Positions 7,351 to 50,894 of a stretch of DNA of 64,000 nt are shown here, in pieces. The notes under the pieces are model-generated. The model was not told the DNA's origin and ran no database searches. It worked only from the letters and a program-made list of their open reading frames with translations. Source of the DNA: Cellulophaga lytica DSM 7489 (GTDB lineage Bacteria > Bacteroidota > Bacteroidia > Flavobacteriales > Flavobacteriaceae). The stretch covers positions 446,501-510,500 of the forward strand of contig NC_015167.1 in assembly GCF_000190595.1 (NCBI RefSeq). Direction: 5' to 3'. Position numbers and translations under genes: made by a program. Every line of letters starts with the position of its first letter. Positions within the stretch are counted from its first letter, which is position 1.

Positions 7351-7354
7351 ACAT

Positions 7355-11007: not shown

Positions 11008-11008
11008 A

Positions 11009-12652: not shown

Positions 12653-12688
12653 CATTAACTAATAAAACACTATTAAACATTGGTAATT

Positions 12689-25568: not shown

Positions 25569-26483
25569 TTACTGGTTAAGGTACTTTTTAGGAAAAAAGG
25601 TAATTGGTGTTATGCTTAAATTTTTATAATATACTTCAGCAGCTTCAGACTGTATTTGTATTTTTCCTTGAGTTACAGGTGTAACAATACCATTTTTTAA
25701 ATAACGGGCATTTTTTACCCTGTTTACAACTTTACCGTTTACTAGATGTATACTTTCTGACCCCAAACAATAAATTTCTAATGTATTCCACTCTCCGTTT
25801 GGCTTCTCAAACATTCCTAATTTACTGGCTTGACCAGATTCAAAACCTGGTCCCCATTTTAAAGGCACTAATTCTGCATTAGGATTATATACAAAAAATG
25901 GCTTTCCGTTTTTAGCATACTTTTTTTCTGCAGGAACATCACCAAAAACATCTGTTAGAGCAATAAAATCTCCGCAATCACCCTCTTGCACCTGAAACTC
26001 TAAACTAGACATCCAAACATTCCAAAAAGCTCCGTGTGGCCCTTTAGCATGATATAAAATTCCGCTATCTCTTTTGGTATACAAACGTGGTTCCCATTTT
26101 TTTTCTCCCCATTTAAACTGCACACTTAAATGGTAATTTCCATACTCTTGCTTTGTAGTTAAACCGCCATAAATTTCACCTGTAACTTTTAAAACCGGTT
26201 CGTTATTTTCTTTTATGATTGAAAACACATTTTTTAAATCTTTGTTTAGCCCTAAAGGTTTTCCTGTTTTTACATCTGCAAACTTCTCTACATTTAAATC
26301 TACAGAAGTATGCACGGCTCCCATCCAAATTTCCCAATTAGATAACTTTTCATCAAACAAATAAATGGTTGAAGAATTTGTATTTTTAACTACATCTGTA
26401 CTTTTACAACTCACAAATAACAACAAATAAAAAGCTGTTATTACTGTATAAAAAAACACTTTTTTAAAAGATTGCATTGCCAT
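25569..26483 (-). CDS. DUF1080 (3-keto-glycoside hydrolase/lyase family) lipoprotein
   Basis: 304 residues; ATG 26477 two codons later is an equally possible start. The lipoprotein signal ends LLLFVSCKS. The rest is one DUF1080 domain of the concanavalin-like fold, with DEKLSNWEIWMG, RDSGILYHAKGPHG, SSLEFQVQEGDCGDF and a C-terminal GKIQIQSEAAEVYYKNLSI, the standard DUF1080 ending. Members of this family act on 3-keto-glycosides formed by a dehydrogenase. A Tat-exported Gfo/Idh/MocA oxidoreductase is encoded at 49572 in the same region, which could supply such a substrate. It follows the GH29 terminator with only about 24 bases for a promoter, so readthrough transcription is likely. Confidence 0.85.
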   Translation of the reverse strand: MAMQSFKKVFFYTVITAFYLLLFVSCKSTDVVKNTNSSTIYLFDEKLSNWEIWMGAVHTSVDLNVEKFADVKTGKPLGLNKDLKNVFSIIKENNEPVLKVTGEIYGGLTTKQEYGNYHLSVQFKWGEKKWEPRLYTKRDSGILYHAKGPHGAFWNVWMSSLEFQVQEGDCGDFIALTDVFGDVPAEKKYAKNGKPFFVYNPNAELVPLKWGPGFESGQASKLGMFEKPNGEWNTLEIYCLGSESIHLVNGKVVNRVKNARYLKNGIVTPVTQGKIQIQSEAAEVYYKNLSITPITFFPKKYLNQ

Positions 26484-36177: not shown

Positions 36178-36194
36178 TTCTAGTTCTTTTTTTA

Positions 36195-39100
36195 TTAAAA
36201 TTTAAATTCAATACCAGCTCTATATTGTGTGCTTATTGGGTAAACACCCGCATCTATACCACGTGTGCTTAAACCATCATTACCTATTTCTGGATCAAAA
36301 CCATCATAATTGGTAATGGTTAATAGGTTATCTGCTGCTATGTAAAATCTTAATTTATTAATATTAAGCTTCTCATTTAATTTTTTAGGTAAAGTATAAC
36401 CTAAAGTTACGTTTCTTAACCTACCAAAACTACCGTCTTGCAACCAGTAATCTGTATATCCTCTGTAATTAAAATGATCTCTACCTCTGTCTGACGGAAT
36501 TGTAGATGTTGGATTTGTTAATGTCCATTGGTGAACTAAGTCTTGATGTGTACCCTGCTTGTATGCATAGGCTTTACTACCATTAATAATTTCTCCTCCT
36601 ATGGCTGCATACCAGTTCATAGAAAAATCTACATTTTTATAATTAGCGTTAAAGTTAAAACCCAACTCATACTCAGGAGCTCCACTACCTTTATAAACTC
36701 TGTCATCTAGTGTAATTTCTCCGTCACCAGCATCTGGTATACCATCATTATTTGTATCTACAGTTAACTGATCTACGTACTTTAAATCTCCTAAATTAGC
36801 CGTAGGATCTATTTGTCTGTACTCATCTAACTCTTCTTGACTAGTAACTAAACCATCTGTTTCTACTAAAAAGAATGCACCAGCCTCATAACCTTCTCTA
36901 AGAGCAGTAACTAAATCTTCTCCTGGTAAGCCTGGCGCTACTTGACTACCTCCTAAGAATGAAAACTTGTTAGAATCACTCATTCTAGTAATTCTATTTT
37001 CATTTTTAGAATAGTTAGCAGAAACGTTCCAACTAAACTTACCTTTGTGTTTGTAATTAGCACTCCATTCTGTACCGTAGTTACGCATATCACCAACATT
37101 TAATATTACGCTAGAGTTGTTACCACCACCAACTGTTGGAGGTAAAATAACAGGAAATAGCATATTTGTTCTAGAACCATCATAAACCTCACTGGTTACT
37201 GTAAGTTTATTGTTAAAAAAACCGAACTCCATACCAAAGTTCTTTTCTATTTTCTTTTCCCATTTTGCTTTAGGATTTTTAAATGCTTCTTGTATAGCTC
37301 CTAAAACCAAAACTTGGTCAGATCCTGTACCAAAAACATAGTCATGTCCTAAACCAATAGTTGGTGCAGTACTATAATCTAATATGCTTTGGTTACCTGT
37401 TGTACCGTAACTAAACCTCATTTTAAAGAAATTAAAGGTTTGTCCAAATATATCATCCCAACCTTTTTCGTCTGATGCAATCCAAGCTGCAGATGCAGAT
37501 GGTGCATATATCCATCTGTTTTCTTCAGAAAAACGGCTTGTACCATCACGCCTTAAACTTGCACTTATTAAGTATTTACCTTTATAATCATACTGTATAC
37601 GCCCTAACATACCAATTAATGTATTGGTTCTGTCTTGTCCGTAACCACTACCAGTACCTACGTTAGCATCTAACGTAGCACCATTTAAGTTGGTGATTTC
37701 ATTATTAAAAAGATCAAATTTTTGAGCAAAGAAAGAATCGTATGTGTATTTTTCTGCACTTACCGCACCTACCAACGTAACGTGGTGGTCTCCAAAAGTT
37801 TTGTCAAAAGTTGCAATACCATCTATGGTTGCACTAGTAGATCTATCACTTTGGTTATACACACCAGACCTAATTTGTTGCGGTATTAAATCTCCTTCTA
37901 CAGAATATGCTGTAAATAAGGGATTTACCCTAACTCTTGTATTGTTTGTTCTGCTTAAAGATGCACGTGTAGTTAATTTTAAGCTAGATAATAATTGGTG
38001 ATCTACCTGCATACGTGCATTAAAATTATCACCTTTTCTAACGTCAGACTGTTTAAGCTTAGCCATTAAAAAACTAAGGTTTGTAGCATCATTATTATTT
38101 GCAGCACCTGCGCTATCATCTACCGTTGGTGAATTTGGATCTATTAATTGCTGATAAGGTTTGTACCTGTAACCATCTAATAATATTTGCCAAGGTGTAT
38201 ACTCTTGCTCATCTGTTCTTAAACCAATACCAGTTGTAAACGTCCATTTTCCTTTTTTATAAGTTGTATTTGCTCTTACATTTAACCTTTCTAAACCAGA
38301 ATTAATTAATGAACCTTTCTGATCAAAATAGTTAACAGACACATTAAAACGTAAGCCTTCTTTACCACCTGATATATTAAGGTTATGGTTTTGAATTAAA
38401 GCCATATCTTCCTGAAGAATATCCATTAAATTGGTGTTGTTGGTAAAGTCATAACGGTTTTGCTCTAGTGTTGTAAATGAGTTATTTGGAAAAGTACCAT
38501 TTATATTGTTTAACCTTACAAATTGGCTATACATAGAATCTTCAAAATTCATTAAAGGAACACTAGATACAATATCTTGCACCCCCATATAACTGGTTAT
38601 ACCAATATCCATTTTACCAACTTTACCAGATTTAGTAGTTATTAATATTACACCCGCAGAACCTCTTGTACCATAAATAGCTGCAGAAGCTGCATCTTTT
38701 AGTACATCTATAGTTTCTATTTCTGCAATACTTAATTGTGGATTACCATCTTGTGGTATACCATCTACTACATACAAAGGAGAGTTACTACCAAAAACAG
38801 AGTTTATACCACGTATAAGTATTACTGCATCAGACCCTGGTTGTCCGCTACTAGAAGTTACGTTTACACCTGCAATTTGCCCTTGCAGTGCACTACCAAC
38901 ATCTGAAGTAGATATTTTTTCAATATCCTCTGCCTGTACTTGGGCAACTGCACCTGTTACCTCTCTTTTCTTTTGCACACCGTAACCAATAAGTACTACT
39001 TCCTTTAATGCCTCAATATCTTCTACCATAGTTACATTAATAGTACTTTTAGAGCCTACTGCAATTTCTTGCGCAACATAGCCTATATAACTATATATTA

Positions 39101-39335
39101 ATACGCTATTTGGTTCTGCTTGTATGGTGTAGTTACCATCAAAATCTGTAACTACCCCAACTGTTGTACCCTTTACAACAACACTTACCCCTAAAAGTGG
39201 CTCGCCATCTGCGCTAACATTACCCTTTACGGTTTTTGTTTGTGCTAGAGCCAAACCAAAGCCTATAACAAAAAACAAAATCGTTAAAAAAGCTTTATGT
39301 CTAGACTTAACAAGTAAATTAAATTTCATTTCCAT
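36195..39335 (-). CDS. susC: SusC/RagA-family TonB-dependent oligosaccharide transporter
   Basis: 1046-residue outer-membrane beta-barrel. Signal peptide to about residue 31 (LALAQ), then a CarboxypepD_reg-like domain (about 33-105), a TonB-box-like VVLIGYG (113-119), a plug domain with LQGQIAGVNV, LYVVDGIP and YGTRGSAGVILITTKSG (about 120-235), and the barrel to the C-terminal aromatic (IEFKF). It imports galactan oligosaccharides into the periplasm using the proton motive force via TonB. No N-terminal STN/anti-sigma domain is present, so it does not look like a sigma-factor signalling receptor; control probably comes from the AraC-type regulator. First gene of its operon, with a 296-base upstream region. 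Confidence 0.95.
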   Translation of the reverse strand: MEMKFNLLVKSRHKAFLTILFFVIGFGLALAQTKTVKGNVSADGEPLLGVSVVVKGTTVGVVTDFDGNYTIQAEPNSVLIYSYIGYVAQEIAVGSKSTINVTMVEDIEALKEVVLIGYGVQKKREVTGAVAQVQAEDIEKISTSDVGSALQGQIAGVNVTSSSGQPGSDAVILIRGINSVFGSNSPLYVVDGIPQDGNPQLSIAEIETIDVLKDAASAAIYGTRGSAGVILITTKSGKVGKMDIGITSYMGVQDIVSSVPLMNFEDSMYSQFVRLNNINGTFPNNSFTTLEQNRYDFTNNTNLMDILQEDMALIQNHNLNISGGKEGLRFNVSVNYFDQKGSLINSGLERLNVRANTTYKKGKWTFTTGIGLRTDEQEYTPWQILLDGYRYKPYQQLIDPNSPTVDDSAGAANNNDATNLSFLMAKLKQSDVRKGDNFNARMQVDHQLLSSLKLTTRASLSRTNNTRVRVNPLFTAYSVEGDLIPQQIRSGVYNQSDRSTSATIDGIATFDKTFGDHHVTLVGAVSAEKYTYDSFFAQKFDLFNNEITNLNGATLDANVGTGSGYGQDRTNTLIGMLGRIQYDYKGKYLISASLRRDGTSRFSEENRWIYAPSASAAWIASDEKGWDDIFGQTFNFFKMRFSYGTTGNQSILDYSTAPTIGLGHDYVFGTGSDQVLVLGAIQEAFKNPKAKWEKKIEKNFGMEFGFFNNKLTVTSEVYDGSRTNMLFPVILPPTVGGGNNSSVILNVGDMRNYGTEWSANYKHKGKFSWNVSANYSKNENRITRMSDSNKFSFLGGSQVAPGLPGEDLVTALREGYEAGAFFLVETDGLVTSQEELDEYRQIDPTANLGDLKYVDQLTVDTNNDGIPDAGDGEITLDDRVYKGSGAPEYELGFNFNANYKNVDFSMNWYAAIGGEIINGSKAYAYKQGTHQDLVHQWTLTNPTSTIPSDRGRDHFNYRGYTDYWLQDGSFGRLRNVTLGYTLPKKLNEKLNINKLRFYIAADNLLTITNYDGFDPEIGNDGLSTRGIDAGVYPISTQYRAGIEFKF

Positions 39336-39561: not shown

Positions 39562-39606
39562 ACAAAAAAACCACCAACACTACAAATAAAATAATGCTGA
39601 TGGTTT
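39562..39606 (-). terminator. Terminator after GH29 (39633)
   Basis: On the - strand AACCATCA pairs with the GGTGGTT arm (one G-U pair), followed by seven Ts. It separates the redox/GH29 operon from susC. Confidence 0.6.
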
Positions 39607-39632: not shown

Positions 39633-41120
39633 TTAAAAAACTATTTTGTACACAAAAGCGTAGTTACCATTTTTTGTTTTTGAAGGTTGTATAACCAAAC
39701 CATTTTTTGTTTGTTCCCAAACAATTTTTTGGTTAGTACCCAACATTTCTATTTTTTTTATTTGATGTTTTGTGTTTGCTAATGATTTTATAAAAACCTT
39801 ATCCTTAGGCCAATCTAAAACTATAGCATACAGTATACCATCTTTTGTTGTAAACCTAATGTCTTTTTCTGTGTTGTCTTTATTTTTATGCTCGCTTAAA
39901 TGCCCTTCTACAACCTCCGATGGGCCTTCTCCAAAAACCTCCCAAGTTCTTGTACCATATATAGCTTCTCCGTTTACTTTTAACCAAGCTCCCATTTGCA
40001 GCAAACGTTCTTTAACTTCTGCAGGAATTTCTCCTTTTGCAGTTGGTGTAATATTTAATAAAACTGCTCCGTTTTTACTTACTACATCTACCAAAAAATC
40101 TATAAGTCTGTTTGTAGATTTGTATTTAGGATTTTGAATATGGCTCCAAGATTTCCAGTCTATTGAGTCGTCTGTTAACCAAGTAAAGTCTTTTTTATCA
40201 CTCATTCTAGAACGTTCTAAATCTAAAACTGCAGAGCCAACTGCTAAATCTTTAAATTTATAGGTTACTACAACTTCCTTATTATTTTTTAATCCTTGGT
40301 TGTAAAAGTTTGCTAAAAATTGTTTTCTGTAATCTTCATCAATAATATCCATTTTATTATCAAACCAAACAATATCAGGGTCATACTTAGTAGTTAACTC
40401 TGTAAGTCTGTTTAACCACTCTTCATTAAATGTTTTGTTAGGTAAAGGGTTTGTAGGTTTATCTGCCATAACAAAAGTGCCCTCTGGAACTTTAGGTCCA
40501 TACAATCCCTTATATTTTAAATTAGCAGCATCTGTAGTTTTATCCCAAGTTGGGTACCAAGCGTATAACCAATGCCTGTGGTAAGTAGTAATAAATTTTA
40601 AACCACGAGCCTTTATAGCTTTTTCCATAGCACCAACAACATCTATTTTAGGTCCTTTATCTTTAGCATCCCAGGTGGTTAATTTACTATCCCACATTGC
40701 AAAACCATCTGCGTGTTCTGCTATTGGACCAGCAAATTGTGCTCCTGCATTTACAAATAAATCTGCCCAAGCATCTGCATTAAACTTTTCTGCAGTAAAC
40801 ATTGGTATAAAATCTTTATAACCAAAAGTATCTAAACTACCATACGTTTTTTTATGGTACTTGTTAATAGGGTGCCCATCTACATACATCCACCTAGAGT
40901 ACCACTCATTTTTATATGCAGGCACTGTATATGGCCCCCAATGAAAGTAAATTCCAAATTTTAGGTCCTTATACCATTCTGGCACATTATACTGCTGTAA
41001 AGACTCCCAATCTGCAGTATATTTTAGGCTCTTATTAGGTATTTCTGTTGTTACTTTTTTACTAGCACAACCTGTAAAAAGTAACACTAAGCAAGCTTTT
41101 ATAAAAATTCTGTTTTTCAT
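39633..41120 (-). CDS. GH29 alpha-L-fucosidase-family lipoprotein with altered His pair
   Basis: 495 residues, lipobox LLFTGC (Cys18). Barrel start WYKDLKFGIYFHWGPYTVPAYKNEWYSR and nucleophile Asp254 in DIVWFDNKMD are conserved, as are NGAVLLNITPTAKG and the C-terminal domain. The usual HHDGF sugar-binding block reads EHADGFAMW, so the second His is Ala; in the Thermotoga enzyme both His residues contact the sugar ring. It may therefore accept a different or substituted sugar such as L-galactose or its 6-sulfate. It is the last gene of the operon with the cytochrome and DUF1501/DUF1553 genes (22-base gap), which ties glycosidic cleavage to the redox set. Confidence 0.87.
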   Translation of the reverse strand: MKNRIFIKACLVLLFTGCASKKVTTEIPNKSLKYTADWESLQQYNVPEWYKDLKFGIYFHWGPYTVPAYKNEWYSRWMYVDGHPINKYHKKTYGSLDTFGYKDFIPMFTAEKFNADAWADLFVNAGAQFAGPIAEHADGFAMWDSKLTTWDAKDKGPKIDVVGAMEKAIKARGLKFITTYHRHWLYAWYPTWDKTTDAANLKYKGLYGPKVPEGTFVMADKPTNPLPNKTFNEEWLNRLTELTTKYDPDIVWFDNKMDIIDEDYRKQFLANFYNQGLKNNKEVVVTYKFKDLAVGSAVLDLERSRMSDKKDFTWLTDDSIDWKSWSHIQNPKYKSTNRLIDFLVDVVSKNGAVLLNITPTAKGEIPAEVKERLLQMGAWLKVNGEAIYGTRTWEVFGEGPSEVVEGHLSEHKNKDNTEKDIRFTTKDGILYAIVLDWPKDKVFIKSLANTKHQIKKIEMLGTNQKIVWEQTKNGLVIQPSKTKNGNYAFVYKIVF

Positions 41121-41142
41121 AGTAGGTTAAATAACTTGGAGA

Positions 41143-42534
41143 TTACATTCCTAATACTATTTTAGGAGCATTGTTACTGTTATAGCCTTCCAAATCTTTT
41201 TGTTTTATATTGGTTTTCCAAACATAAGCATATTTTAAGTTCTTCATTTTAGAAAACACTCGTAAACTTTTAGCTGTAATATTAGTTTCAAATAAATTAA
41301 CTGATGTCATTTTTTGTAGACTTGTAAGATACTCTACAGCATTATCTGATATTGGGTTTTTACCAAGCTTTAACTTTTGAATGTTTGTAAATTGACTTAT
41401 CACTTTTACATTTTCATCTGTTATCCCATTACTTTCTAAAGATAACCATATGATATTTTCTTTTATAGGTAACAACTTTTCTAATTTATTATGAAGCTGA
41501 TCTTTGGTTACTTCTTGTATTGTATTGACATCTAAAACTACCTCAAATAAACTAGAATCAAACACTAGCTCTCTTAACCTAAAACCTTCTTTTTCTATAC
41601 TTGCTATTAATTGTTCACTTACTTTAGTTACCGTAGGCAATGCCTCCGAAGAGTTACTATTAGTAAGCCCCAACATAGTGCTAGCAATTGTGGTTATATT
41701 TTCTGGTGTTTCTACATTAGCTACTTTGGTTTTAAAGCCAGCGTTAGAGCTATTTATCCAATAGGTAATAATAGCAATTTCCTCATCAGTTAAGGGTGTT
41801 TTTCCTTCCGGAGGCATAAAATCTTTACTATGAGGGTCTAGTAATACTCTTTTTACCAGTTCAGATTTGGTAGCACTACCAGGTACTAAAACAGGACCAT
41901 TTTTTCCTCCACTATGTATAGAAACACTGTCTACCATAGACAAACCTCCCTTTTTTTTGCTCTGGTTATGACAGCTAATACATTTATTATCTAAAATTGG
42001 AGCCACTAAATGTCCGTAAACCTCAGCTTCTTTTAAATTTGTAACTGCTGCTAATTCTGTTTTTTCTTCTTTGTTAAAAGGTAAGTACTTTACTAGATAA
42101 TCACTACCGTGAGTAAGGTTACCACCGTAATGCCCTGTTACACTTATTACAATAACTAATAAAGTAAGAGCTGCTATATTGGGTTGTAATTTTTTATAGT
42201 TTGATAATTTTATTTTTTCAATTCTAATTAACCAAGCTACAAAGGCTAGTACTGTTGTTACAACACCAAACCAAAAGTGAGAATCCAACGCATTTTCATC
42301 ATAATCTCCACTTAGTGATAACATATAACCTAAAATACAAGCTACCAATGCACTGACACCTCCTAAAAACAATGCTAAAGGAATAGCCGTTGTTAATACA
42401 GGATTTTTTTTAACTCTGCTAAAAACCTCTAATAAAAAGGCAAATACTAAAAAACCTATTGGTAAATGCACCACAAGTGGATGAAACCTACCTAAAAATA
42501 ATACAATATCTGGGACACTATTTTCCATACTCAA
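41143..42534 (-). CDS. Membrane cytochrome c-like protein (DUF2231-like + PSCyt1 + LRR)
   Basis: 463 residues. An N-terminal DUF2231-like membrane part has four predicted helices (about 20-38, 48-72, 86-104, 119-135) and begins FHPLVVHLPIGF. A short periplasmic cytochrome domain of the planctomycete cytochrome c type carries one heme motif CISCH (Cys185, Cys188, His189), KKKGGLSM and KDFMPPEGKTPLT. The C-terminal 170 residues are leucine-rich-repeat-like (NIIWLSLESNGITDENVKVI). It would pass electrons between periplasmic partners and the inner membrane. Fourth gene of the five-gene operon, 9 bases after the NHL gene. Electron donor unknown. Confidence 0.82.
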   Translation of the reverse strand: MSMENSVPDIVLFLGRFHPLVVHLPIGFLVFAFLLEVFSRVKKNPVLTTAIPLALFLGGVSALVACILGYMLSLSGDYDENALDSHFWFGVVTTVLAFVAWLIRIEKIKLSNYKKLQPNIAALTLLVIVISVTGHYGGNLTHGSDYLVKYLPFNKEEKTELAAVTNLKEAEVYGHLVAPILDNKCISCHNQSKKKGGLSMVDSVSIHSGGKNGPVLVPGSATKSELVKRVLLDPHSKDFMPPEGKTPLTDEEIAIITYWINSSNAGFKTKVANVETPENITTIASTMLGLTNSNSSEALPTVTKVSEQLIASIEKEGFRLRELVFDSSLFEVVLDVNTIQEVTKDQLHNKLEKLLPIKENIIWLSLESNGITDENVKVISQFTNIQKLKLGKNPISDNAVEYLTSLQKMTSVNLFETNITAKSLRVFSKMKNLKYAYVWKTNIKQKDLEGYNSNNAPKIVLGM

Positions 42535-42543
42535 CTTATAATT

Positions 42544-43650
42544 TTAAACGCGCTCTAATTTTATTGGAGCCGTTTTATTAGCATTCCATTGGCAGATATA
42601 CAAATTTTTATCTTCATCTACACATACATCATGACCGTGTAAAATGGGTTTGTTTTTTAGTTGATATGATTTTTGAAGAGCTCCGTTTTTGTACTCTGGA
42701 GCAGTGCCTCCCGGATTAGAAACCACTTTATCACCATCTAAAATAGTTACAAAACCAGTGTGGTCTTTCCAGTTTGTTTTTCCAACTTTGGGCTGAGACC
42801 AGCACACACCTGCATACAAGTTAGTATCATCAAAAACTGGTCTGCATACTTGCATATTGGGTAATTTTAATGTTTTAACGTACGTGCCATCTAAGGTAAA
42901 CCATTTAAAACACTGCTCATTTCTTGAGGTACACACAACCATAGGGTTGTTTTTATCTCTGTAATCTATAGCAACACCATGTGCGTTTTGCAAATTGTAA
43001 TTTTTATTGGTGTTGTTATGTCCTCCCCAACGCCTAATAAATTCTCCTTTATAATTGTATTGCAAAATATAATCTTGTCCGTAACCATCTGCCACATAAA
43101 TATCTCCGTTAGGACCTATGGCTATTTCGGTTGGACAAAAATTTTCTCCAGGCTCATAAACTCCTATTGTTTGCGGATGACCAATATCAAAAATAACTTT
43201 ACCATCTGTGGTTGTTTTTGTTATTCTTCCATTATGCTTAACCCATTTTCCTGTTTTATTTAAATACCAACCAGAATCTGCTAAAAACAAAAAATCCTCA
43301 CCACCCTCATTAGATATTTTAAGTCCGTGACCACCAGGGTAAGCTGTTCCCCAAACATCTAAAACCTTACCAGATTTATCAAAAATTATAATATTATTTT
43401 TGGTATGATCACCTATCATTATTAACCTTCCTTTACTGTCCATTTCCATTTCATGGCAATTTAACAAAGGAGTATGCACTGCACTTATTTGTGCCCAATC
43501 ATTATTTACTTTATACGTATAATCTCCGTGGCCTAAAATAGTTTGGTTGGGCTTGCTTTTTTTAAGAATTGAAAAACCGATAGATGGAGTAGCTGTAACA
43601 GCTGCACTAGCTAGAGCTGTATTTTTTATAAAATTTCTTCTAGAAGACAT
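42544..43650 (-). CDS. Tat-exported NHL-repeat beta-propeller protein
   Basis: 368 residues. The N-terminus has a twin-arginine signal (SSRRNFIKNTALASAAV). The rest is a six-bladed propeller of NHL type with blades seen in MEMDSKGRLIMIGDHTKNN, EIAIGPNGDIYVADGYGQD and AHGVAIDYRDKNNPMVVCTS. Relatives are encoded next to PSCyt/DUF1501 genes in Planctomycetes and Bacteroidota, with unknown function. No catalytic residues are evident. Tat export implies that it folds, possibly with a cofactor, before crossing the membrane. 12 bases after the DUF1501 gene. Confidence 0.8.
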   Translation of the reverse strand: MSSRRNFIKNTALASAAVTATPSIGFSILKKSKPNQTILGHGDYTYKVNNDWAQISAVHTPLLNCHEMEMDSKGRLIMIGDHTKNNIIIFDKSGKVLDVWGTAYPGGHGLKISNEGGEDFLFLADSGWYLNKTGKWVKHNGRITKTTTDGKVIFDIGHPQTIGVYEPGENFCPTEIAIGPNGDIYVADGYGQDYILQYNYKGEFIRRWGGHNNTNKNYNLQNAHGVAIDYRDKNNPMVVCTSRNEQCFKWFTLDGTYVKTLKLPNMQVCRPVFDDTNLYAGVCWSQPKVGKTNWKDHTGFVTILDGDKVVSNPGGTAPEYKNGALQKSYQLKNKPILHGHDVCVDEDKNLYICQWNANKTAPIKLERV

Positions 43651-43662
43651 TTATTTGGTTAT

Positions 43663-45177
43663 TTAGGTTAATAAATCTTTTACAACATTACCATGTACAT
43701 CTGTTAAACGGTATCGTCTGCCTTGGTGCTTAAATGTTAAGCGTTCATGGTCTATACCAAACAAATGTAAAAGTGTTGCATGAAAGTCATGTACATGTAC
43801 AGGATCTTTTACAACGTTGTAACTAAAATCATCTGTTTCTCCATAAGTAAAGCCTGGTTTAACACCGGCTCCTGCCATCCACATTGTAAATGCCTTTGGA
43901 TGGTGATCTCTACCATAATTTTCTTTGGTTAATTGACCTTGTGAGTATACTGTACGGCCAAACTCTCCTCCCCAAACAACCAAGGTATCATCTAACATAC
44001 CTCGTTGCTTTAGATCTTTTATTAATGCTGCAGTTGGCTGGTCTGTTTTTTTAGATTGACTTTTTACACCTCCTGGACAGTAACTATGTTGATCCCAACC
44101 CTGATGGTATAGTTGTACAAACTTTACGCCTTTTTCTAACAGTTTTCTGGCCATTAGGCAATTTGCTGCATAAGTACCAGGATCTCTACTGTCTTTACCA
44201 TACATTTCAAAAATTTTATCTGGCTCATCAGACAAGTCTGTTACCTCTGGCACAGAAGTTTGCATTTTAAATGCCATTTCATACTGAGACATTCTTGCTT
44301 GTATTTCTGGGTCTCCGTAAGCATCAGTTTGTAAACTATTTAAATCTTTTAAATAATTTAGCATATGTCTACGGTCATTACCATCATAATTTTCTGGATC
44401 ACTTAAGTACAATACGGGATCTTTACCAGATCTAAACTGTACCCCTTGGTGTTCTGTTGGTAAAAAACCATTACCCCACAAAGCCGCTTTTAAAGGTTGG
44501 CCTTTACCATTTTTAGAAACTAAAGTTATAAACGTTGGCAAATTTTCATTGTCTGATCCTAAACCATAGCTAAGCCAGGATCCAATAGATGGCCTACCTG
44601 GCAACTGGTTACCTGTTTGCATAAAAGTAACTGCTGGTGTATGGTTTATTTGGTCTGTTTGCATTCCTTTTATAAAGCATAAATCATCTACAACCTCAGA
44701 CAAATAAGGCATTGCATTACTAACCCAAGCTCTAGACTCTCCGTATTGCTTAAACGTAAACGAAGATGGCGCTATAGGTAACGTACTTTGGTTGCCACTC
44801 ATCCCAGTTAACCTTTGTCCGCCTATAATAGACTCTGGTAACTCTTTACCAAACATATCTGTTAGTTTAGGCTTATAGTCAAACAAATCCATTTGTGATG
44901 GACCTCCACTCTGAAACAAGTAAATAATTCTTTTTGCTTTTGGTAAATGGTGAGGTAAACCAAGCCTGTTTTTGTTATACGTATTTAATATATCTTCTGC
45001 AGAACTATTCTTATTTATAGACGCAAACATTTTATCTGCTCCTAACAATGTTCCTAAAGCTAAAGCACCTATACCTAAAGATGTCTTTTTTAAAAAATCT
45101 CTTCGGTCTACTTGTTTCTCTAGTTCTTGTAAATCTTTATTAACAGATTTTATTTTTTGGTGATGATTATTACACAT
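43663..45177 (-). CDS. Tat-exported DUF1501 protein (alkaline-phosphatase/sulfatase-like fold)
   Basis: 504 residues. Twin-arginine signal after an N-terminal extension (VDRRDFLKKTSLGIGALALGTLLG, RR at 25-26). DUF1501 hallmarks are KRIIYLFQSGGPSQMDLFDYKP, GKELPESI, HHPKAFTMWMAGAGVKPG and DFHATLLHLFGIDHERLT. The fold is related to sulfatases and phosphatases, but the formylglycine motif is absent, so it is not counted as a sulfatase. It always appears with DUF1549/DUF1553 cytochromes, as here (26 bases upstream). Role unknown; the pairing suggests a redox or desulfation function in the periplasm. Confidence 0.9.
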   Translation of the reverse strand: MCNNHHQKIKSVNKDLQELEKQVDRRDFLKKTSLGIGALALGTLLGADKMFASINKNSSAEDILNTYNKNRLGLPHHLPKAKRIIYLFQSGGPSQMDLFDYKPKLTDMFGKELPESIIGGQRLTGMSGNQSTLPIAPSSFTFKQYGESRAWVSNAMPYLSEVVDDLCFIKGMQTDQINHTPAVTFMQTGNQLPGRPSIGSWLSYGLGSDNENLPTFITLVSKNGKGQPLKAALWGNGFLPTEHQGVQFRSGKDPVLYLSDPENYDGNDRRHMLNYLKDLNSLQTDAYGDPEIQARMSQYEMAFKMQTSVPEVTDLSDEPDKIFEMYGKDSRDPGTYAANCLMARKLLEKGVKFVQLYHQGWDQHSYCPGGVKSQSKKTDQPTAALIKDLKQRGMLDDTLVVWGGEFGRTVYSQGQLTKENYGRDHHPKAFTMWMAGAGVKPGFTYGETDDFSYNVVKDPVHVHDFHATLLHLFGIDHERLTFKHQGRRYRLTDVHGNVVKDLLT

Positions 45178-45203
45178 AATATATCTTTAAAAAAATGGTC
45201 TAT

Positions 45204-48200
45204 TTATCTTTTAGTAATTGTTGCATCTGCATTCATTATTGTACTAGCTACAACGGCATTTGCTGCTACCAGAGCTTTGTTATCTGTGTCAGACAATTTA
45301 AAAGCCCCTGTTTGTAACCAACCTTTTGCTTTATCTAAATTGGCACTAAATTTCTCGTATTCAGATTTTTGCAAATTAATTAGTAGTTTTAGTTCATTTT
45401 GATTGGCATTTCTTCCTGTAAGCCTTAAAAAGGCTAAGTTAACTGCCTCTTTTTCATCTTTTATTTCAGACATTTTTTTACCTAACACCCTAGATGCTTC
45501 TATGTATGTAGGATCATTAAGAACAACAAGAGCTTGTAATGGTGTATTTGTTTTTTGTCTACGAGAAGAGCATAAATCTCTAGTAGGAGCATCAAAAGTT
45601 GCAATAGTTGGGTTTGGCACAGAGCGTTTCCAAATGGTATACATACTTCTTCTGTACAAGCCTTCTTCCCCGTCTTGCACATACTCATCACTATTTACTT
45701 TCCATAATCCTTTAGGCTGATAAGGTTTTACGCTTTCTCCTCCAATTTTTTTGTTTAGCAAACCAGATGCTAACAAGGCATTATCTCTTAACATTTCTCC
45801 AGATAACCTTGAAGACGGACCGCGAGACAACCATTTATTTTCTACATCTACAGCTAATAACTCTTCAGATATTACAGAGCTCTGCTGGTATGTGTTTGTT
45901 AGCATTATAGTTTTAAGTAGTTTTTTTACATCCCAACCAGACTCTACAAAACTAACCGCTAACCAATCTAACAATTTAGGGTGCGTAGGCAGGTTTCCTT
46001 GGTTACCAAAGTCTTCTGAACTTAACACAAGACCTCTTCCAAATAAATTTTGCCAATACCTATTTACCGTTACTCTGGCAGTTAAAGGGTTGTTTTTATC
46101 TGTAATCCACTTGGCTAAACCTAACCTATTTTTAGGCCAGCTATCATCCCATTGCAATATATCTTTTGGCACATTAGGAAAAACAGAATCTGTAGGAGAA
46201 TCATAATTACCACGATCTAAAATATAGGTTTGTCTTGGCGTTTTACGCTCTTTCATTACCATAATCTGCTTAACAGGGTCTATACTATCTACTAGAACAA
46301 GTCTGTCTTTTTCTAATTTTTTTAGCATAGCAGTGTAAGACTCAGAGTTGGTATGTAGGTAATATTTTAATAGTTTATCTTTTTCTGCTTTAGATAAATT
46401 AGCAAAGGTTTTATTTTTAAGTGTTTTTAGTTTTTCTGTATCTGCAATTTGCAACACTTCAATTTCACTTAATTCTTTATTATAAACCAGTAAATCATCT
46501 ACAGTGGCTCCGCCAATACCTTTACCTCTCCATACTGCTCCTATACGCAAACCTGGTTCTAGTTTTTCACTCTCTGGCCCGTATAATCTTATCTCATGAA
46601 ATACAATATCTTTATATAAATTATCATAAACAGTTTTTGTTTTTTGTTTTTCTCCATCTACATAAATAGCTACCCCGTCTGCTTTGCTAGAGCCATCATA
46701 GGTCATAGTAAGTTGTATCCATTTTTCCTTTGGCACATTATTTAATGACTCTATTACTATGGCATTATCTGGATATACATGGGCTAGTAAAGCCTCTAGT
46801 TTATTGTTTTTTATTTTTAAATGATACCCTCTAAAACTGTGTAACTCTGGGCTATTCATTTTATGAAAAATAACTCCCTCTTCTAAATCTTTTGGTATAA
46901 ATACTTTTATACCTATACTAAATGGCTGATTTCTTTGGTAAATACCAATTTTATCTAAATCTAACCAAGTATCTCCATTCATAAACAAACCATTACCACT
47001 AGCTCCTTTTTTGTAAATAGGTTTTTCATTATCTACAAATTGCTGGCGCATTCTTATATTATTTTGTCCGTTACCACCTATAGCATTTGTTATTTTTGGA
47101 GTATTAAAATTAAAAGAGGCCACCAAACCAGTTGGTGCAGGCTGCAATGGTATTTTTTGATGACTATTATTGGCTAACCATTTGTTTGCTTTTGTGGTTT
47201 CATTTTGTGCAGTTTGCGCTACTTTATTTTCTGTAGTATTTACAATTTTTTCTAGATAAGCAATTACCCCTTCTTGCTCTTTAGTTGGCAACATCATTGC
47301 AGGAACTGGTGTAGCTAAATCCCAAGGAATTAAGCCGGTTTCATCTATATTGTTAAAAAAACTATACATTTCATAATAGTTTTTTTGTGAAATAGGGTCA
47401 TACTTATGGTCATGGCATTTTGCGCAAGCGTAAGACAAGCCTAACATACCTTGTGTTACTGTAGCGGTCCTATCTGCAACATACTCAGATCTAAATTCTT
47501 CATCTATAATACCACCTTCTAAATTTTGCGGATGCAGTCTGTTAAAAGCTGTTGCTATTTTTTGTTCTGTTGTTGGGTCATCAAATAAATCTCCTGCCAA
47601 TTGCCAAGTTAAAAACTCATTATATGGCATATTTTCATTAAAAGATTTTATTACCCAATCTCTCCACGGAGAAGTATCTCTATACCTATCATTACTATAA
47701 CCGTGAGTATCTGCATATCTAGAAACATCCATCCAATCTAATGTCATTTGCTCTCCAAAATGAGGAGATGCTAATAACCTATCTATTTGTTTTTCAAAAG
47801 CATTAGTAGAAGTATCATTTATAAAATTTTGTATTTCTTGCTGTGTTGGCGGTAAACCTGTTAGGTCTAAAGAAGCCCTACGGAGTAACATATGCTTATT
47901 TGCTTTTTTAGAAGGTAAAAGGTTTACTTCTTCTAATTTTGCAAGAACAAAATTATCTATAGCATTTGCCGCTAAATTAGGCTCTTTAATTTTTGGTACA
48001 ACTGGCTTTTCTGGTTTAATAAATGCCCAATGATCTTTATACTCAGCTCCGTCTTCAATCCACTTAATTAAAACAGCTTTTTCATAATCTGTTAAGGTTA
48101 AATGAGAACTAGGTTCTGGCATTATTAACTTAGGATCATCTGTCATTATTCTATGAAAAAACTCGCTTTTGTTTAAATTACCTGGAGTAATTGCAAATTT

Positions 48201-48458
48201 TCCTGGAGTCTCTGTTAATTCTGCATAAGCAAAACTAGCCTCATGTAATTGTAAGCCACCTTTTATATTTCCTTTATCTGGACCATGGCACAAATAGCAT
48301 TTATCAGACAAAATTGGTTTTACATGCTGATTAAAATCTACTTTTTCTGGTAAGTTGTTATATTCTACAGCAACCAACTCTGGTAAGTCTGGGCCTCCAC
48401 AAGAACACAATAACAAAAAAACACCACCTATAATTAACAGTATCTTATTTTTTAACAT
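45204..48458 (-). CDS. Di-heme PSCyt1-DUF1549-LamG-DUF1553 lipoprotein
   Basis: 1084-residue lipoprotein (LLLCSC, Cys20). Order: PSCyt1 domain with CYLCH (Cys54, Cys57, His58); DUF1549 (about 150-360) containing a second CXXCH in CAKCHDHKYDPI; an inserted LamG/concanavalin-like domain (about 460-640) with GNGLFMNGDTWLDLDKIG and VDDLLVYNKELSEIEV; and DUF1553 (about 760-1040) with ARVTVNRYWQNLFGRGLV and DLCSSRRQKTNTPLQALV. Two c-type hemes plus a possible sugar-binding LamG module suggest a redox enzyme acting on glycans. Family best known from Planctomycetes; biochemical function is not established. First gene of the operon and divergent from the AraC regulator. Confidence 0.9.
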   Translation of the reverse strand: MLKNKILLIIGGVFLLLCSCGGPDLPELVAVEYNNLPEKVDFNQHVKPILSDKCYLCHGPDKGNIKGGLQLHEASFAYAELTETPGKFAITPGNLNKSEFFHRIMTDDPKLIMPEPSSHLTLTDYEKAVLIKWIEDGAEYKDHWAFIKPEKPVVPKIKEPNLAANAIDNFVLAKLEEVNLLPSKKANKHMLLRRASLDLTGLPPTQQEIQNFINDTSTNAFEKQIDRLLASPHFGEQMTLDWMDVSRYADTHGYSNDRYRDTSPWRDWVIKSFNENMPYNEFLTWQLAGDLFDDPTTEQKIATAFNRLHPQNLEGGIIDEEFRSEYVADRTATVTQGMLGLSYACAKCHDHKYDPISQKNYYEMYSFFNNIDETGLIPWDLATPVPAMMLPTKEQEGVIAYLEKIVNTTENKVAQTAQNETTKANKWLANNSHQKIPLQPAPTGLVASFNFNTPKITNAIGGNGQNNIRMRQQFVDNEKPIYKKGASGNGLFMNGDTWLDLDKIGIYQRNQPFSIGIKVFIPKDLEEGVIFHKMNSPELHSFRGYHLKIKNNKLEALLAHVYPDNAIVIESLNNVPKEKWIQLTMTYDGSSKADGVAIYVDGEKQKTKTVYDNLYKDIVFHEIRLYGPESEKLEPGLRIGAVWRGKGIGGATVDDLLVYNKELSEIEVLQIADTEKLKTLKNKTFANLSKAEKDKLLKYYLHTNSESYTAMLKKLEKDRLVLVDSIDPVKQIMVMKERKTPRQTYILDRGNYDSPTDSVFPNVPKDILQWDDSWPKNRLGLAKWITDKNNPLTARVTVNRYWQNLFGRGLVLSSEDFGNQGNLPTHPKLLDWLAVSFVESGWDVKKLLKTIMLTNTYQQSSVISEELLAVDVENKWLSRGPSSRLSGEMLRDNALLASGLLNKKIGGESVKPYQPKGLWKVNSDEYVQDGEEGLYRRSMYTIWKRSVPNPTIATFDAPTRDLCSSRRQKTNTPLQALVVLNDPTYIEASRVLGKKMSEIKDEKEAVNLAFLRLTGRNANQNELKLLINLQKSEYEKFSANLDKAKGWLQTGAFKLSDTDNKALVAANAVVASTIMNADATITKR

Positions 48459-48576: not shown

Positions 48577-48666
48577 CTACTAAAATTTGCTATTTTAGTA
48601 GAGATTTAAGTAGTTGTTTAGAAAAGTGTCTAGTTTTAGAAAAATACTAAATCAGCTATTTTAGAA
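48577..48666. promoter_or_regulatory. Operator cluster between DUF1553 operon and AraC gene
   Basis: Within the gene-free 48459-48681 lies a perfect 10-bp inverted repeat CTACTAAAAT / ATTTTAGTAG (48577-48586 with 48592-48601, 5-base spacer). The + strand also shows three similar direct repeats: TATTTTAGTAG (48591-48601), GATTTAAGTAG (48603-48613) and TATTTTAGAAG (48656-48666). Direct repeats are the usual binding-site form for AraC-family proteins, so autoregulation and control of the divergent operon are likely. Confidence 0.6.
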
Positions 48667-48681
48667 GAATAAGTACTAATT

Positions 48682-49551
48682 ATGATAGAAATTCTACAAT
48701 CTTTAAGGTTAACTTTACTTAACACTGGCTATGCTAAATTAGGTACATCATGGAATTTTGACAATGTTATTAGTCCGTTTACCAGAATGTATTACATTAC
48801 AAAAGGCACTGCTAAAGTGTACCATAATGATGGAGTTTACATTTTAAAGCCTGGCTACATATACTTAATTCCTAGCTATACTTATGCTAGGTATATTTGT
48901 GAGGATTATCATGAGCAATATTACATTAGTTTTTTAGAGGAAATTAATAATGGCTTGTCTATATACAATTTTAAAAATTTTGAATACGAAGTAAAAGCAG
49001 ATGAAAAAAGCTTGTATTATTTTAAAAGATTGGTTGACTTAAATGCCAATAGGGAAATTAAAAATAGTGATCCTAAAACGTATGATAATAGACCTACACT
49101 ATTAGACTTTATTAAACAAAATGAAAATTTAACCACAAAAGAGTTTATAGAAACCCAAGGAATATTAAATATATTAATATCAAAATTTATAACAAATAAT
49201 AAACTCCCTAAAGAAATAAACCTAACCAACTCTAATTTAAACCAAATACTAAACTACATTAATAAAAATCTTCATTTACCAATTACTATAGATGAGCTTG
49301 CTAATAAGTGCCATTACAGTACAGATTATTTTTCTAAGTTATTTTTACAAACCTATGGTATTAGACCTAATAAATACATACAAACCAAAAGAATAGAGCG
49401 TGCACAACTACTGCTATTAACCACAAACGACTCTTTAGAAGAGGTGGCACAAAAGGTTGGTTTTGAAAACGTATCATACTTTTCTAGATCTTTTAAAAAG
49501 CATACAGAAAAAACACCTGCTTCTTTTAGAAAGGAACAGGTGAATATATAA
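48682..49551 (+). CDS. AraC-family transcriptional regulator
   Basis: 289 residues, cytoplasmic. The N-terminal cupin-like sensory part (about 20-100: FTRMYYITKGTAKVYHNDG, ILKPGYIYLIPSYTYARYI) would bind a sugar ligand. The C-terminal double helix-turn-helix (about 188-285) has NKNLHLPITIDELANKCHYS, YFSKLFLQTYGIRPNKYI and the signature LEEVAQKVGFENVSYFSRSFKKHTEKTPASFR. It is the only regulator next to the PUL and is divergent from the DUF1553 operon. Half-sites in its own promoter resemble strings before several PUL units, so it is the likely local activator. Effector unknown. Confidence 0.93.
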   Translation: MIEILQSLRLTLLNTGYAKLGTSWNFDNVISPFTRMYYITKGTAKVYHNDGVYILKPGYIYLIPSYTYARYICEDYHEQYYISFLEEINNGLSIYNFKNFEYEVKADEKSLYYFKRLVDLNANREIKNSDPKTYDNRPTLLDFIKQNENLTTKEFIETQGILNILISKFITNNKLPKEINLTNSNLNQILNYINKNLHLPITIDELANKCHYSTDYFSKLFLQTYGIRPNKYIQTKRIERAQLLLLTTNDSLEEVAQKVGFENVSYFSRSFKKHTEKTPASFRKEQVNI

Positions 49552-49571: not shown

Positions 49572-50894
49572 TTAAAACTTACGTTCTTTTCTACCACGCA
49601 TTTTATTAGCTTCTTTGTCTTTTAAAAACTTTTCTTTTACTGGATCCCAATCTAAATCTCTGCCTAAATTATACGCAATATTAGCAATATTACATACTGT
49701 TGCAGAACGGTGACCTGTTTCTACATCACAAATAGGTTGAGTTCTATTTTTTATAGAAGTAATCCAATCTTGGTAGTGATTCCCTTTTGTGTCATACAAC
49801 TTAGTATCTGATGTTGTTAACTCTGCATTTACTAAATTTTTAGGCGTAGTTTCAAAATAGCTACGGCTAATATCCATAGTGCCTTTAGACCCTATAAAAC
49901 GTACACCCCAACCTCTACCAAAGTCTTGGTGTATCATTTCTACTCCATTATCATAATACATTTTTAAACCTCTAACAGCTGTTTTATCTGTTGGCGGAAC
50001 ATACTTTACAGGTCCAGACCTATCCATACCTAATGCCCATTGTACAATATCAAACATATGTGCACCCCAATCACAAAGTATACCACCACCTACTTCTTCA
50101 TAAAGTCTCCAGTCTGGCCAAAAATCAACATCGTTACGAGATGGTGCTAATCTGTGGTTATATTCTAATAATGGGGCAGGTCCGCACCAATTGTTCCAAT
50201 TTACCTCACTTGGTAGTGTTTCTGCTTTTAAATTGTATGGTACTGCTGGGTCTCCTACATTTACCAATACTTGTTTTATATCTCCCAGGTAACCATTTCT
50301 AACAAGTTCACAGGCTCTTCTAAAATTTTTGTTAGAACGTTGCATACTACCAGTTTGCAATATTTTACTTGTTTTTTTTGCTGTTTTAACTAGATCTATA
50401 CCCTCATTAATATTATGAGTTAAAGGTTTTTCACAATAAACATCTTTACCCGCTTTCATAGCATCTATAGCTTGTATTGCATGCCAATGATCTGGTGTTG
50501 CAATAACTACGGCATCTATATCATTACGGTCTAACAACTCCTTGTAATTTGTGTATGTAGTTACTCCGTTGTAACTATTTTGGTTTCTTTTGTCTGCATA
50601 AATTTTATTTACAGCACCTTTAAACCATTCGTTTTTTGTAGACCATACATCACAGGCTGCTATAATTTGGGAATTTGTAGCACCCACAAAATTATTTGCT
50701 AAACCTCTACTTTGTTTTCCTAATCCTATAAAACCTATATTAACTCTGTCACTTGGAGCAACAAATCCTCTACCAAAAATATGCCTTGGTAATATAGTAA
50801 TGGCTCCGGTTGCTAAAGCTGTTTTTGTAATAAAGCCTCTTCTGGATACTTTGGTGTTTATTTTTGTTTTTTTAATGTTGCCTGAGTCTTTCAT
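49572..50894 (-). CDS. Tat-exported Gfo/Idh/MocA-family oxidoreductase
   Basis: 440 residues. The N-terminus carries a twin-arginine signal (VSRRGFITKTALATGAITIL). A Rossmann NAD(P)-binding domain starts at VNIGFIGLGKQSRG, with ATPDHWH and the family catalytic block DVYCEKPLTHN (Lys of EKP). The C-terminal alpha/beta domain has DWGAHMFDIVQWALG. Tat export implies the dinucleotide is bound before export, as in glucose-fructose oxidoreductase. Such proteins oxidise sugars at C3 to start 3-keto-glycoside routes; the DUF1080 protein at 25569 would be a matching second step. Not in an operon with the PUL genes but separated from them only by the AraC gene. Confidence 0.88.
   Translation of the reverse strand: MKDSGNIKKTKINTKVSRRGFITKTALATGAITILPRHIFGRGFVAPSDRVNIGFIGLGKQSRGLANNFVGATNSQIIAACDVWSTKNEWFKGAVNKIYADKRNQNSYNGVTTYTNYKELLDRNDIDAVVIATPDHWHAIQAIDAMKAGKDVYCEKPLTHNINEGIDLVKTAKKTSKILQTGSMQRSNKNFRRACELVRNGYLGDIKQVLVNVGDPAVPYNLKAETLPSEVNWNNWCGPAPLLEYNHRLAPSRNDVDFWPDWRLYEEVGGGILCDWGAHMFDIVQWALGMDRSGPVKYVPPTDKTAVRGLKMYYDNGVEMIHQDFGRGWGVRFIGSKGTMDISRSYFETTPKNLVNAELTTSDTKLYDTKGNHYQDWITSIKNRTQPICDVETGHRSATVCNIANIAYNLGRDLDWDPVKEKFLKDKEANKMRGRKERKF

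What the first reader, a model, noticed from the sequence alone, without database searches (positions are those of the whole stretch)
39633..48458. Cytochrome/Tat redox operon linked to a GH29 within the galactan locus
A di-heme DUF1549/DUF1553 lipoprotein with an inserted LamG domain, a Tat-exported DUF1501 protein, a Tat-exported NHL propeller and a membrane cytochrome c are cotranscribed with a GH29 (gaps of 9-26 bases). This set is known from Planctomycetes without an assigned function. Here its operon context ties it to sulfated galactan use, pointing to a periplasmic oxidation of sugars with electrons passed to the inner membrane. This is the best candidate in the window for an undescribed system.
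Basis: partly seen in the sequence, partly recalled or inferred. Interest (0 to 1): 0.75.

Follow-up and report, generated by a model that had tools for sequence, protein, structure and literature searches.

The report
Cytochrome operon beside an L-galactosidase
A marine bacterium that eats red-algal sugars carries, in one operon with an enzyme that probably clips L-galactose, a set of electron-carrying proteins of unknown function that tends to occur with the same kind of enzyme in related bacteria, so it probably handles electrons taken from those sugars, though the actual reaction is not yet known.

Summary
In detail: five minus-strand genes (gaps 26, 12, 9, 22) encode a di-heme PSCyt1-PSCyt2-LamG-PSD1 lipoprotein, Tat DUF1501, Tat NHL, a DUF2231-PSCyt1-LRR membrane cytochrome and a GH29, followed by a hairpin before SusC. 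The GH29 is closest to BpGH29 exo-alpha-L-galactosidase; an apparently complete L-galactose pathway lies 8-16 kb left of the window. The module is not planctomycete-specific: PSD1 is in 107 of 397 genomes sampled from the window's family; DUF1501 directly follows PSD1 in 120 of 121 loci read. Three subtypes (LamG, N-glycan-type, FGE/YceI-type) sit in different settings. GH29 entered the LamG operon once, in one clade, but the GH29 orthologue co-occurs with LamG-PSD1 across genomes (18 of 22; 14 of 16 genera). DUF1501 has a sulfatase-like fold without the sulfatase nucleophile motif; the membrane subunit keeps five membrane-part His. Best reading: an electron-transfer module serving L-galactan use, probably oxidising a carbohydrate and reducing quinone. 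Direction, substrate and catalytic subunit are inferred; free L-galactose does not appear to need it; 23 of 60 LamG loci show no membrane cytochrome within 20 kb. A carbohydrate role for PSCyt proteins was proposed in 2017.

The parts
45204..48458 (-). PSCyt1-PSCyt2-LamG-PSD1 di-heme probable lipoprotein, 1084 aa, first gene
   Evidence: Pfam; AlphaFold model pLDDT 89.2, pTM 0.89; Foldseek rows shown appear to match only the inserted LamG-like beta-sandwich (inferred, no aligned ranges shown)
43663..45177 (-). DUF1501, Tat-exported, sulfatase/alkaline-phosphatase-like fold, 504 aa
   Evidence: Pfam, TIGR01409, model pLDDT 83.5, Foldseek
42544..43650 (-). Tat-exported NHL beta-propeller, 368 aa
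   Evidence: RR motif in 66 of 70 NHL proteins of the set
41143..42534 (-). Membrane cytochrome: DUF2231 + PSCyt1 c heme + LRR part, 463 aa, TTG start
   Evidence: H18 H23 H86 H135 H142, CxxCH and M240 conserved at 90% or more of 99 rows
39633..41120 (-). GH29, probable exo-alpha-L-galactosidase, 495 aa, last gene
   Evidence: closest PDB chains 7snk, 7ljj, 7lnp (BpGH29), E about 1e-117
39568..39606 (-). terminator-like hairpin, 16 pairs, followed by a T run, between GH29 and SusC
   Evidence: 8 such sites in the region against a shuffle mean of 4.8
48682..49551 (+). AraC-family regulator, divergent from the operon, 223 bases away
   Evidence: Pfam; an AraC gene directly upstream and divergent in 28 LamG loci besides the window (29 rows)
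49572..50894 (-). GFO/IDH/MocA oxidoreductase with an RR signal, distantly like glycoside 3-dehydrogenase BT_2158 (174.8 bits, cut-off 750)
   Evidence: this gene family in 20 of 60 LamG neighbourhoods
34375..39335 (-). SusC/SusD pair downstream, probably a separate unit
   Evidence: Pfam; hairpin
25569..26483 (-). DUF1080 (3-keto-disaccharide hydrolase family)
   Evidence: Pfam
26568..28115 (-). second GH29, also closest to BpGH29
7295..9172 (+). beta-porphyranase-type enzyme
   Evidence: PF18206 and PF18040
19609..20871 (+). GH117-like 3,6-anhydro-alpha-L-galactosidase relative
   Evidence: PDB 4u6d 712 bits; also 3p2n, 4ak5; the family number is recalled

Best explanation
The operon is one transcription unit that couples release of L-galactose (GH29) to an envelope electron-transfer module. 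Proposed path: a carbohydrate from the red-algal galactan, held by the LamG-bearing di-heme lipoprotein and its near-obligate partner DUF1501, is oxidised; electrons run through the two c hemes of the PSD1 protein to the c heme and then the His-rich membrane part of the DUF2231-PSCyt1-LRR protein, and into the quinone pool. The NHL propeller is a substrate- or partner-binding part. Shown here: gene order, domains, heme motifs, co-occurrence with the GH29 orthologue and with L-galactose pathway genes. Inferred: a single transcript, electron direction, quinone as partner, DUF1501 as catalytic subunit, sugar as substrate. The substrate is more likely an oligosaccharide end or another sugar of the polymer than free L-galactose.
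For: Five-gene run between a divergent AraC gene and a hairpin. PSD1 then DUF1501 in 120 of 121 family loci, and in 67 of the 78 genome-contig loci in which DUF1501 was called. Two CxxCH in 123 of 124 PSD1 proteins; five membrane-part His plus CxxCH and Met in the membrane subunit, at least 90% of 99 rows. Carbohydrate-associated domains recur in the module: LamG in 60 of 60 long PSD1 proteins, CHB_HEX_C in the membrane protein of the second set. LamG-PSD1 in 18 of 22 GH29-orthologue genomes against 26 of 375 others; within the 127 lactonase-positive genomes 18 of 22 against 22 of 105; by genus 14 of 16 against 20 of 221. Lactonase-like gene in 77 of 107 PSD1 genomes against 50 of 290 without. 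FucP in 10, lactonase in 9, tagaturonate reductase in 6, altronate-type dehydratase in 6 and Zn-ADH in 10 of 60 LamG neighbourhoods (names), and such a row left of the window in this genome.
Against: No flavin, PQQ, molybdopterin or nicotinamide domain in the five proteins at E 0.001, so the catalytic centre is unidentified. The L-galactose pathway left of the window looks complete without it. Three GH29-orthologue genomes (G078, G151, G264) have no PSD1 match and a fourth (G121) no LamG-PSD1 listed. The membrane cytochrome was found within 20 kb in only 37 of 60 LamG loci, and NHL in 43 of 60; L143 has PSD1 without DUF1501. The core also occurs with N-glycan and other gene sets. Freshwater Verrucomicrobia show an inverse relation of PSCyt and GH gene density (PMC5615132). 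Direction of electron flow is not shown.
Confidence: 0.4

Rival explanations
1. Electrons run the other way: quinol reduces the membrane cytochrome and the PSD1 protein, and the PSD1-DUF1501 pair uses them for a reductive or oxygen-dependent attack on a glycan or its modification.
For: The heme anatomy allows both directions; no dehydrogenase domain; a MauG/CCP-type protein (Pfam) is in 7 of 60 LamG loci.
Against: No known oxygenase domain in the five proteins; no direct evidence.
Confidence: 0.15
2. The module reoxidises the bound nicotinamide of Tat-exported GFO/IDH/MocA glycoside dehydrogenases that act with DUF1080 hydrolases (3-keto route).
For: GFO gene with an RR signal beside the AraC gene here, GFO in 20 of 60 LamG loci and 8 of 61 others; resemblance to BT_2158; DUF1080 in the same locus.
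Against: No GFO gene was detected within 20 kb in 40 of 60 LamG loci nor in any of 26 N-glycan-type loci; resemblance to BT_2158 is far under the cut-off.
Confidence: 0.1
3. Not a catalytic redox system: a glycan-binding, sensing or envelope-structure module, as implied by the older link of DUF1501 to compartmentalised PVC cells.
For: LamG, LRR and propeller parts; literature cites a DUF1501 module in compartmentalised PVC species (PMC4960237, passages).
Against: Heme motifs kept in 123 of 124 PSD1 proteins; found in 107 of 397 genomes of the window's own family, which named matches such as Tamlana and Zobellia place in Bacteroidota; statistical tie to catabolic genes.
Confidence: 0.15
4. DUF1501 is a working sulfatase or phosphatase and the cytochromes are incidental neighbours.
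For: The 50 Foldseek rows shown are sulfatases, alkaline phosphatases and relatives.
Against: No CxPSR motif in 121 family and 87 other DUF1501 proteins; the invariant sulfatase Asp of the DNG stretch aligns with E405; DUF1501 follows PSD1 in 120 of 121 loci.
Confidence: 0.08

Closest known systems
PSCyt/PSD proteins of Verrucomicrobia and Planctomycetes (PMC5615132, section 13; first described in Rhodopirellula baltica, as cited there)
   Same: PSCyt and PSD domains in one protein, LamG-type domains, conserved neighbour genes of unknown family, sulfatase genes nearby, function unknown
   Different: Here in the window's own family, with NHL, DUF2231-PSCyt1-LRR and a GH29 in the same run, and tied to L-galactose genes
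BpGH29 exo-alpha-L-galactosidase of the Bacteroides plebeius porphyran locus (PDB 7LJJ, 7SNK; PMC12316285, passages)
   Same: GH29 homology over residues 34-493 of 495, porphyran setting
   Different: In PMC12316285 the word cytochrome occurs only in a reference title; here the gene is last in a redox operon
LacABC periplasmic glycoside 3-dehydrogenase with DUF1080 hydrolase (PMC9007349, passages)
   Same: Membrane-bound periplasmic sugar oxidation as a concept; DUF1080 present in this locus
   Different: No dehydrogenase domain in these five genes
S1 sulfatases / alkaline phosphatase superfamily
   Same: Fold of DUF1501 by Foldseek
   Different: Sulfatase nucleophile motif absent, an invariant Asp replaced by Glu, paired with a di-heme protein

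Membership tests
PSCyt/PSD1 (planctomycete-type cytochrome) proteins | PSCyt1 + PSCyt2 (DUF1549) + PSD1 (DUF1553) in one protein | tested here: met
   Pfam, all over cut-off
PSCyt/PSD1 (planctomycete-type cytochrome) proteins | two c-type heme motifs | tested here: met
   window protein; 123 of 124 proteins of the set
PSCyt/PSD1 (planctomycete-type cytochrome) proteins | conserved partner gene directly adjacent | tested here: met
   DUF1501 next to PSD1 in 120 of 121 and 67 of 78 loci
PSCyt/PSD1 (planctomycete-type cytochrome) proteins | lipoprotein signal | tested here: inconclusive
   N-terminal Cys invariant in 60 of 60 LamG-type proteins, but a strict lipobox pattern matched only 54 of 124
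GH29 exo-alpha-L-galactosidase (BpGH29 type) | near-full-length GH29 homology closest to BpGH29 | tested here: met
GH29 exo-alpha-L-galactosidase (BpGH29 type) | activity on alpha-L-galactosides | not testable with these tools
   needs enzyme assay
S1 sulfatase | CxPSR formylglycine motif (recalled) | tested here: not met
   absent in 121 and 87 DUF1501 proteins
S1 sulfatase | sulfatase-like fold | tested here: met
   Foldseek best E 2.4e-7, TM about 0.35; model pLDDT 83.5
LacABC-type periplasmic sugar dehydrogenase | known catalytic dehydrogenase subunit | tested here: not met
   no dehydrogenase domain in the five proteins at E 0.001
Quinone-linked membrane cytochrome | conserved His in membrane helices and a c heme | tested here: met
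   four hydrophobic segments; five His, CxxCH and Met at 90% or more of 99 rows
Quinone-linked membrane cytochrome | b heme and quinone reaction | not testable with these tools
   needs spectroscopy

The most novel reading that the evidence does not exclude
PSD1-DUF1501 is an unrecognised class of carbohydrate dehydrogenase: a sulfatase-fold, Tat-exported DUF1501 with a rebuilt His/Asp/Glu/Arg site is the catalytic metal subunit, the di-heme PSD1 protein takes the electrons, and the DUF2231 membrane protein feeds them to quinone. The LamG subtype is the version serving L-galactan, while other subtypes serve N-glycan and further substrates.
Probability: 0.22. Interest if true: 0.85.

Novelty: new variant of a known kind. 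Interest (0 to 1): 0.55.

Why it matters
PSCyt/PSD1 proteins were still called function-unknown in 2017 (PMC5615132), and R. baltica carries 41 copies of PSD1 and of PSCyt2 (PMC2754498, passages). A compact version in one operon with a probable L-galactosidase, in a locus for a defined polymer, gives a concrete genetic system and substrate set in which the function can be tested. If it is sugar oxidation, hydrolytic marine polysaccharide loci would also carry a respiratory branch.

Tried and rejected
Idea that the module is the L-galactose 1-dehydrogenase: weakened, because an SDR, lactonase-like protein, Zn-ADH, tagaturonate-reductase-type and altronate-type dehydratase genes lie together left of the window. 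Idea that DUF1501 is an active sulfatase: motif absent, Asp to Glu; the global alignment was poor and is not used. Idea that GH29 joined LamG operons repeatedly: rejected, one clade with support 96. Structure search of the PSD1 model: the 50 rows shown look like matches of the inserted LamG-like beta-sandwich, many of them binding domains of clostridial toxins; this is a common fold and was not pursued. Bacteroidetes-type promoter pattern: 3 hits against 7.2 by chance. AraC operator motif: CATTTCCG in 12 of 29 regions (3 of them empty), highest count in 50 mononucleotide shuffles 11, not convincing. Literature searches listed no paper that assigns a function to this set; the library lacks most subscription papers and supplements could not be read. 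A word search of PMC5613140 and PMC5698469 (Zobellia transcriptomes) found no mention of cytochrome in the main texts; the passages seen of PMC7356697 and PMC9007349 did not treat this set. The PVC genome-content paper was not held and the first R. baltica description was not read.
Full report
Observation. Pfam gives PSCyt1, PSCyt2, Laminin_G_3 and PSD1 in the 1084-residue first protein, DUF1501 in the second, a weak NHL match in the third, DUF2231 and PSCyt1 in the fourth, and GH29 in the fifth; the fourth also matches leucine-rich repeat chains and has four hydrophobic segments. A terminator-like 16-pair hairpin with a T run lies at 39606-39568, directly after the GH29 stop and before SusC (8 sites in the region against a shuffle mean of 4.8). 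An AraC-family gene diverges 223 bases upstream. So the redox genes and the GH29 probably form one unit of their own; transcription was not measured.

Setting. The window is a red-algal galactan locus: porphyranase, GH16 and several sulfatases, a 3,6-anhydro-alpha-L-galactosidase relative, SusC/SusD. The operon's GH29 is closest to BpGH29 exo-alpha-L-galactosidase (399.5 bits to 7snk), as is a second GH29; the third was not compared with PDB. BpGH29 acting after the sulfatase in porphyran breakdown is described in PMC12316285 (passages). The 18 kb left of the window hold, in a row, an MFS transporter, an SDR, a lactonase-like amidohydrolase, a mannitol-dehydrogenase-family protein, a galactarate/altronate-type dehydratase and a Zn-dependent dehydrogenase (Pfam). 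Close homologues elsewhere scored as FucP, L-fucono-lactonase, tagaturonate reductase and so on. The order of pathway steps is established knowledge; the lactonase score here is 260 bits against an NCBIfam cut-off of 400.

Second copy. The genome has a second set at C1:2594824-2602632: PSD1 without LamG, DUF1501, NHL, a small lipoprotein-like gene and a longer DUF2231-PSCyt1 protein with CHB_HEX_C, near GH20 and two GH92 genes (Pfam) and SusC/SusD-like genes (by BLAST and eye). No GH29 lies near it: a whole-genome search found GH29 only at three places, all inside the window.

Spread. PSD1 occurs in 11 of 18 genomes of the genus and 107 of 397 sampled from the family. I fetched 120 of the sites listed there as stretches of up to 20 kb. 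The lists were longer than what I took and were themselves cut at weaker scores, so this is not a random sample. With the own second copy that makes 121 loci, 60 with long PSD1 (over 1000 residues) and 61 without. LamG was checked by Pfam in 60 of 60 long and 1 of 61 other proteins. DUF1501 was found in 120 of the 121 (not in L143) and directly follows PSD1 in all 120, with the membrane cytochrome in the same run in 93 and NHL in 67. In genome contigs, 79 loci from Bacteroidota, Verrucomicrobiota, Planctomycetota and Acidobacteriota were returned (the best of a capped list); PSD1 is directly upstream in 67 of the 78 in which DUF1501 was called, with the membrane cytochrome in the run in 24 and NHL in 6. 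So the PSD1-DUF1501 pair is the constant part and the membrane subunit is less constant outside this family.

Subtypes (neighbours by BLAST best hit to references from this genome or by clustering, so families absent from the references are missed). LamG (60): sulfatase in 22, GFO in 20, AraC in 30, GH29 in 10, FucP in 10, lactonase in 9, membrane cytochrome in 37. No LamG, with NHL (26): GH92 in 10, GH20 in 9, GH29 in 7, sulfatase in none. Neither LamG nor NHL (35): FGE-type protein in 22, YceI in 22, M20 in 13, SDR in 14, FAH-type hydrolase in 6 (family names). On a quick DUF1501 tree of 121 rows the LamG label needs 2 changes against 40.6 in shuffles.

The GH29 link. GH29 lies in the same run in 12 of 120 loci: seven LamG loci and five of the N-glycan type. 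The seven LamG ones and the window form one clade of eight (SH-aLRT 96), so the in-operon link of the LamG type is a single event. A broader test: GH29 orthologues of at least 59% identity occur in 22 of 397 genomes (the threshold was set after seeing the gap down to 51%, and at most three candidates per genome were scored). Of these 22, 18 have LamG-PSD1 against 26 of 375 others; by genus 14 of 16 against 20 of 221; within the 127 lactonase-positive genomes 18 of 22 against 22 of 105. LamG status there was read from open frames over 1000 residues in the listed rows, so it may be undercounted, and relatedness and general polysaccharide use are only partly controlled. In four genomes (G101, G028, G392, G243) the orthologue lies 28-32 kb from the module; in G034, G229 and G252 it is about 240 kb or more from the nearest site that I compared. 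Against a strict need: G078, G151 and G264 have the orthologue and no PSD1 match. GH29 of any kind lies within 20 kb of 9 of 33 listed PSD1 sites in 21 genomes against 1.4 expected; four of the nine are the same genus.

The L-galactose link. A lactonase-like gene is in 77 of 107 PSD1 genomes against 50 of 290 without, and in 40 of 44 LamG genomes, 37 of 63 other PSD1 genomes. In 35 genomes chosen from loci already seen, it lies within 20 kb of a listed PSD1 site in 10 against 0.8 expected, and within 100 kb in 22 against 4.1; the choice was not blind, so this is supportive only. No lactonase match reached its curated cut-off.

Proteins. PSD1 proteins keep two CxxCH in 123 of 124. The membrane subunit keeps H18, H23, H86, H135 and H142 in its hydrophobic part, plus CxxCH and M240, at 90% or more of 99 rows, which fits a b/c-type link to quinone but does not prove it. 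DUF1501 has R25, R26, H179, D362, H364, R423, D424 and H425 invariant in 68 sequences down to 26% identity, with E405 at 90% or more; its model (pLDDT 83.5) matches sulfatases and alkaline phosphatases by Foldseek (best E 2.4e-7, TM about 0.35). It lacks CxPSR in all 121 and 87 proteins checked, and a local profile comparison (probability 89) puts E405 at an Asp invariant in nine sulfatases. Sequence searches of PDB gave nothing convincing for PSD1 or DUF1501 (best E 0.2 and 0.3). The PSD1 model is confident (pLDDT 89.2), but the 50 Foldseek rows shown look like the inserted LamG-like domain only.

Mechanism. I think the most likely reading is oxidation of a galactan-derived carbohydrate at the PSD1-DUF1501 pair with electrons going through c hemes to the membrane subunit and quinone. 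Gene order, domains, heme motifs and co-occurrence are shown. Direction, substrate, quinone and the catalytic site are inferred. Free L-galactose is an unlikely sole substrate, because the cytosolic route appears complete.

Literature. PMC5615132 (section 13 read) already notes LamG-type domains, sulfatase neighbours and a probable carbohydrate role of PSCyt genes in Verrucomicrobia, with function unknown, and reports an inverse relation to GH density. PMC2754498 (passages) suggests a redox function. PMC4960237 and PMC5122149 (passages) cite a DUF1501 module in compartmentalised PVC bacteria. The window's family is Bacteroidota by its named near matches (Tamlana at 88%, Zobellia), so that link cannot be the whole story. 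Searches for a function of this set listed none in the held library.

Verdict. A real, bounded, conserved operon; a clade-specific variant of a known but unexplained family; a good test case.

Noticed in passing
L001 6824-14632 (genome C1:2594824-2602632): A second, paralogous redox set in the same genome without LamG and GH29, near GH20, GH92 and SusCD-like genes.
   Followed up: partly
L258 2319-9567 (8-16 kb left of the window): MFS transporter, SDR, lactonase-like, mannitol-dehydrogenase-family, altronate-type dehydratase and Zn-dehydrogenase genes in a row: a probable L-galactose operon, followed by a gene that reads like a hybrid two-component regulator.
   Followed up: yes
L004 6139-9357: A divergent DUF1501 gene next to a DUF1800 gene (Pfam), the pair described near bacterial chitin synthases in PMC5122149.
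   Followed up: partly
window 48577-48601: A perfect 10-base inverted repeat with a 5-base loop between the AraC gene and the operon; similar half-sites in L062, not kept in most other loci.
   Followed up: partly
L077 4976-7782: Beside the module of another genome: P450, 2Fe-2S ferredoxin and ferredoxin-reductase-type genes (Pfam), as in the porphyran demethylation system cited in PMC12316285.
   Followed up: partly
L112 11077-12249 and cluster 22: A MauG/CCP-type protein near the module in 7 of 60 LamG loci.
   Followed up: partly
L095, L083, L133, L241, L250 and others: In the subtype without LamG and NHL the module is followed by an SDR and an FAH-type hydrolase related to 2,4-didehydro-3-deoxy-L-rhamnonate hydrolase, hinting at deoxy-sugar acid breakdown.
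   Followed up: partly
L164 and L171 near 9980-13274: A small gene with a CxxCH-like stretch and xanthine-dehydrogenase-type molybdenum enzyme genes follow the module, another possible redox partner.
   Followed up: no
window 25569-26483 and 49572-50894: DUF1080 and an RR-signal GFO/IDH/MocA protein in the same locus suggest a possible 3-keto sugar route.
   Followed up: partly
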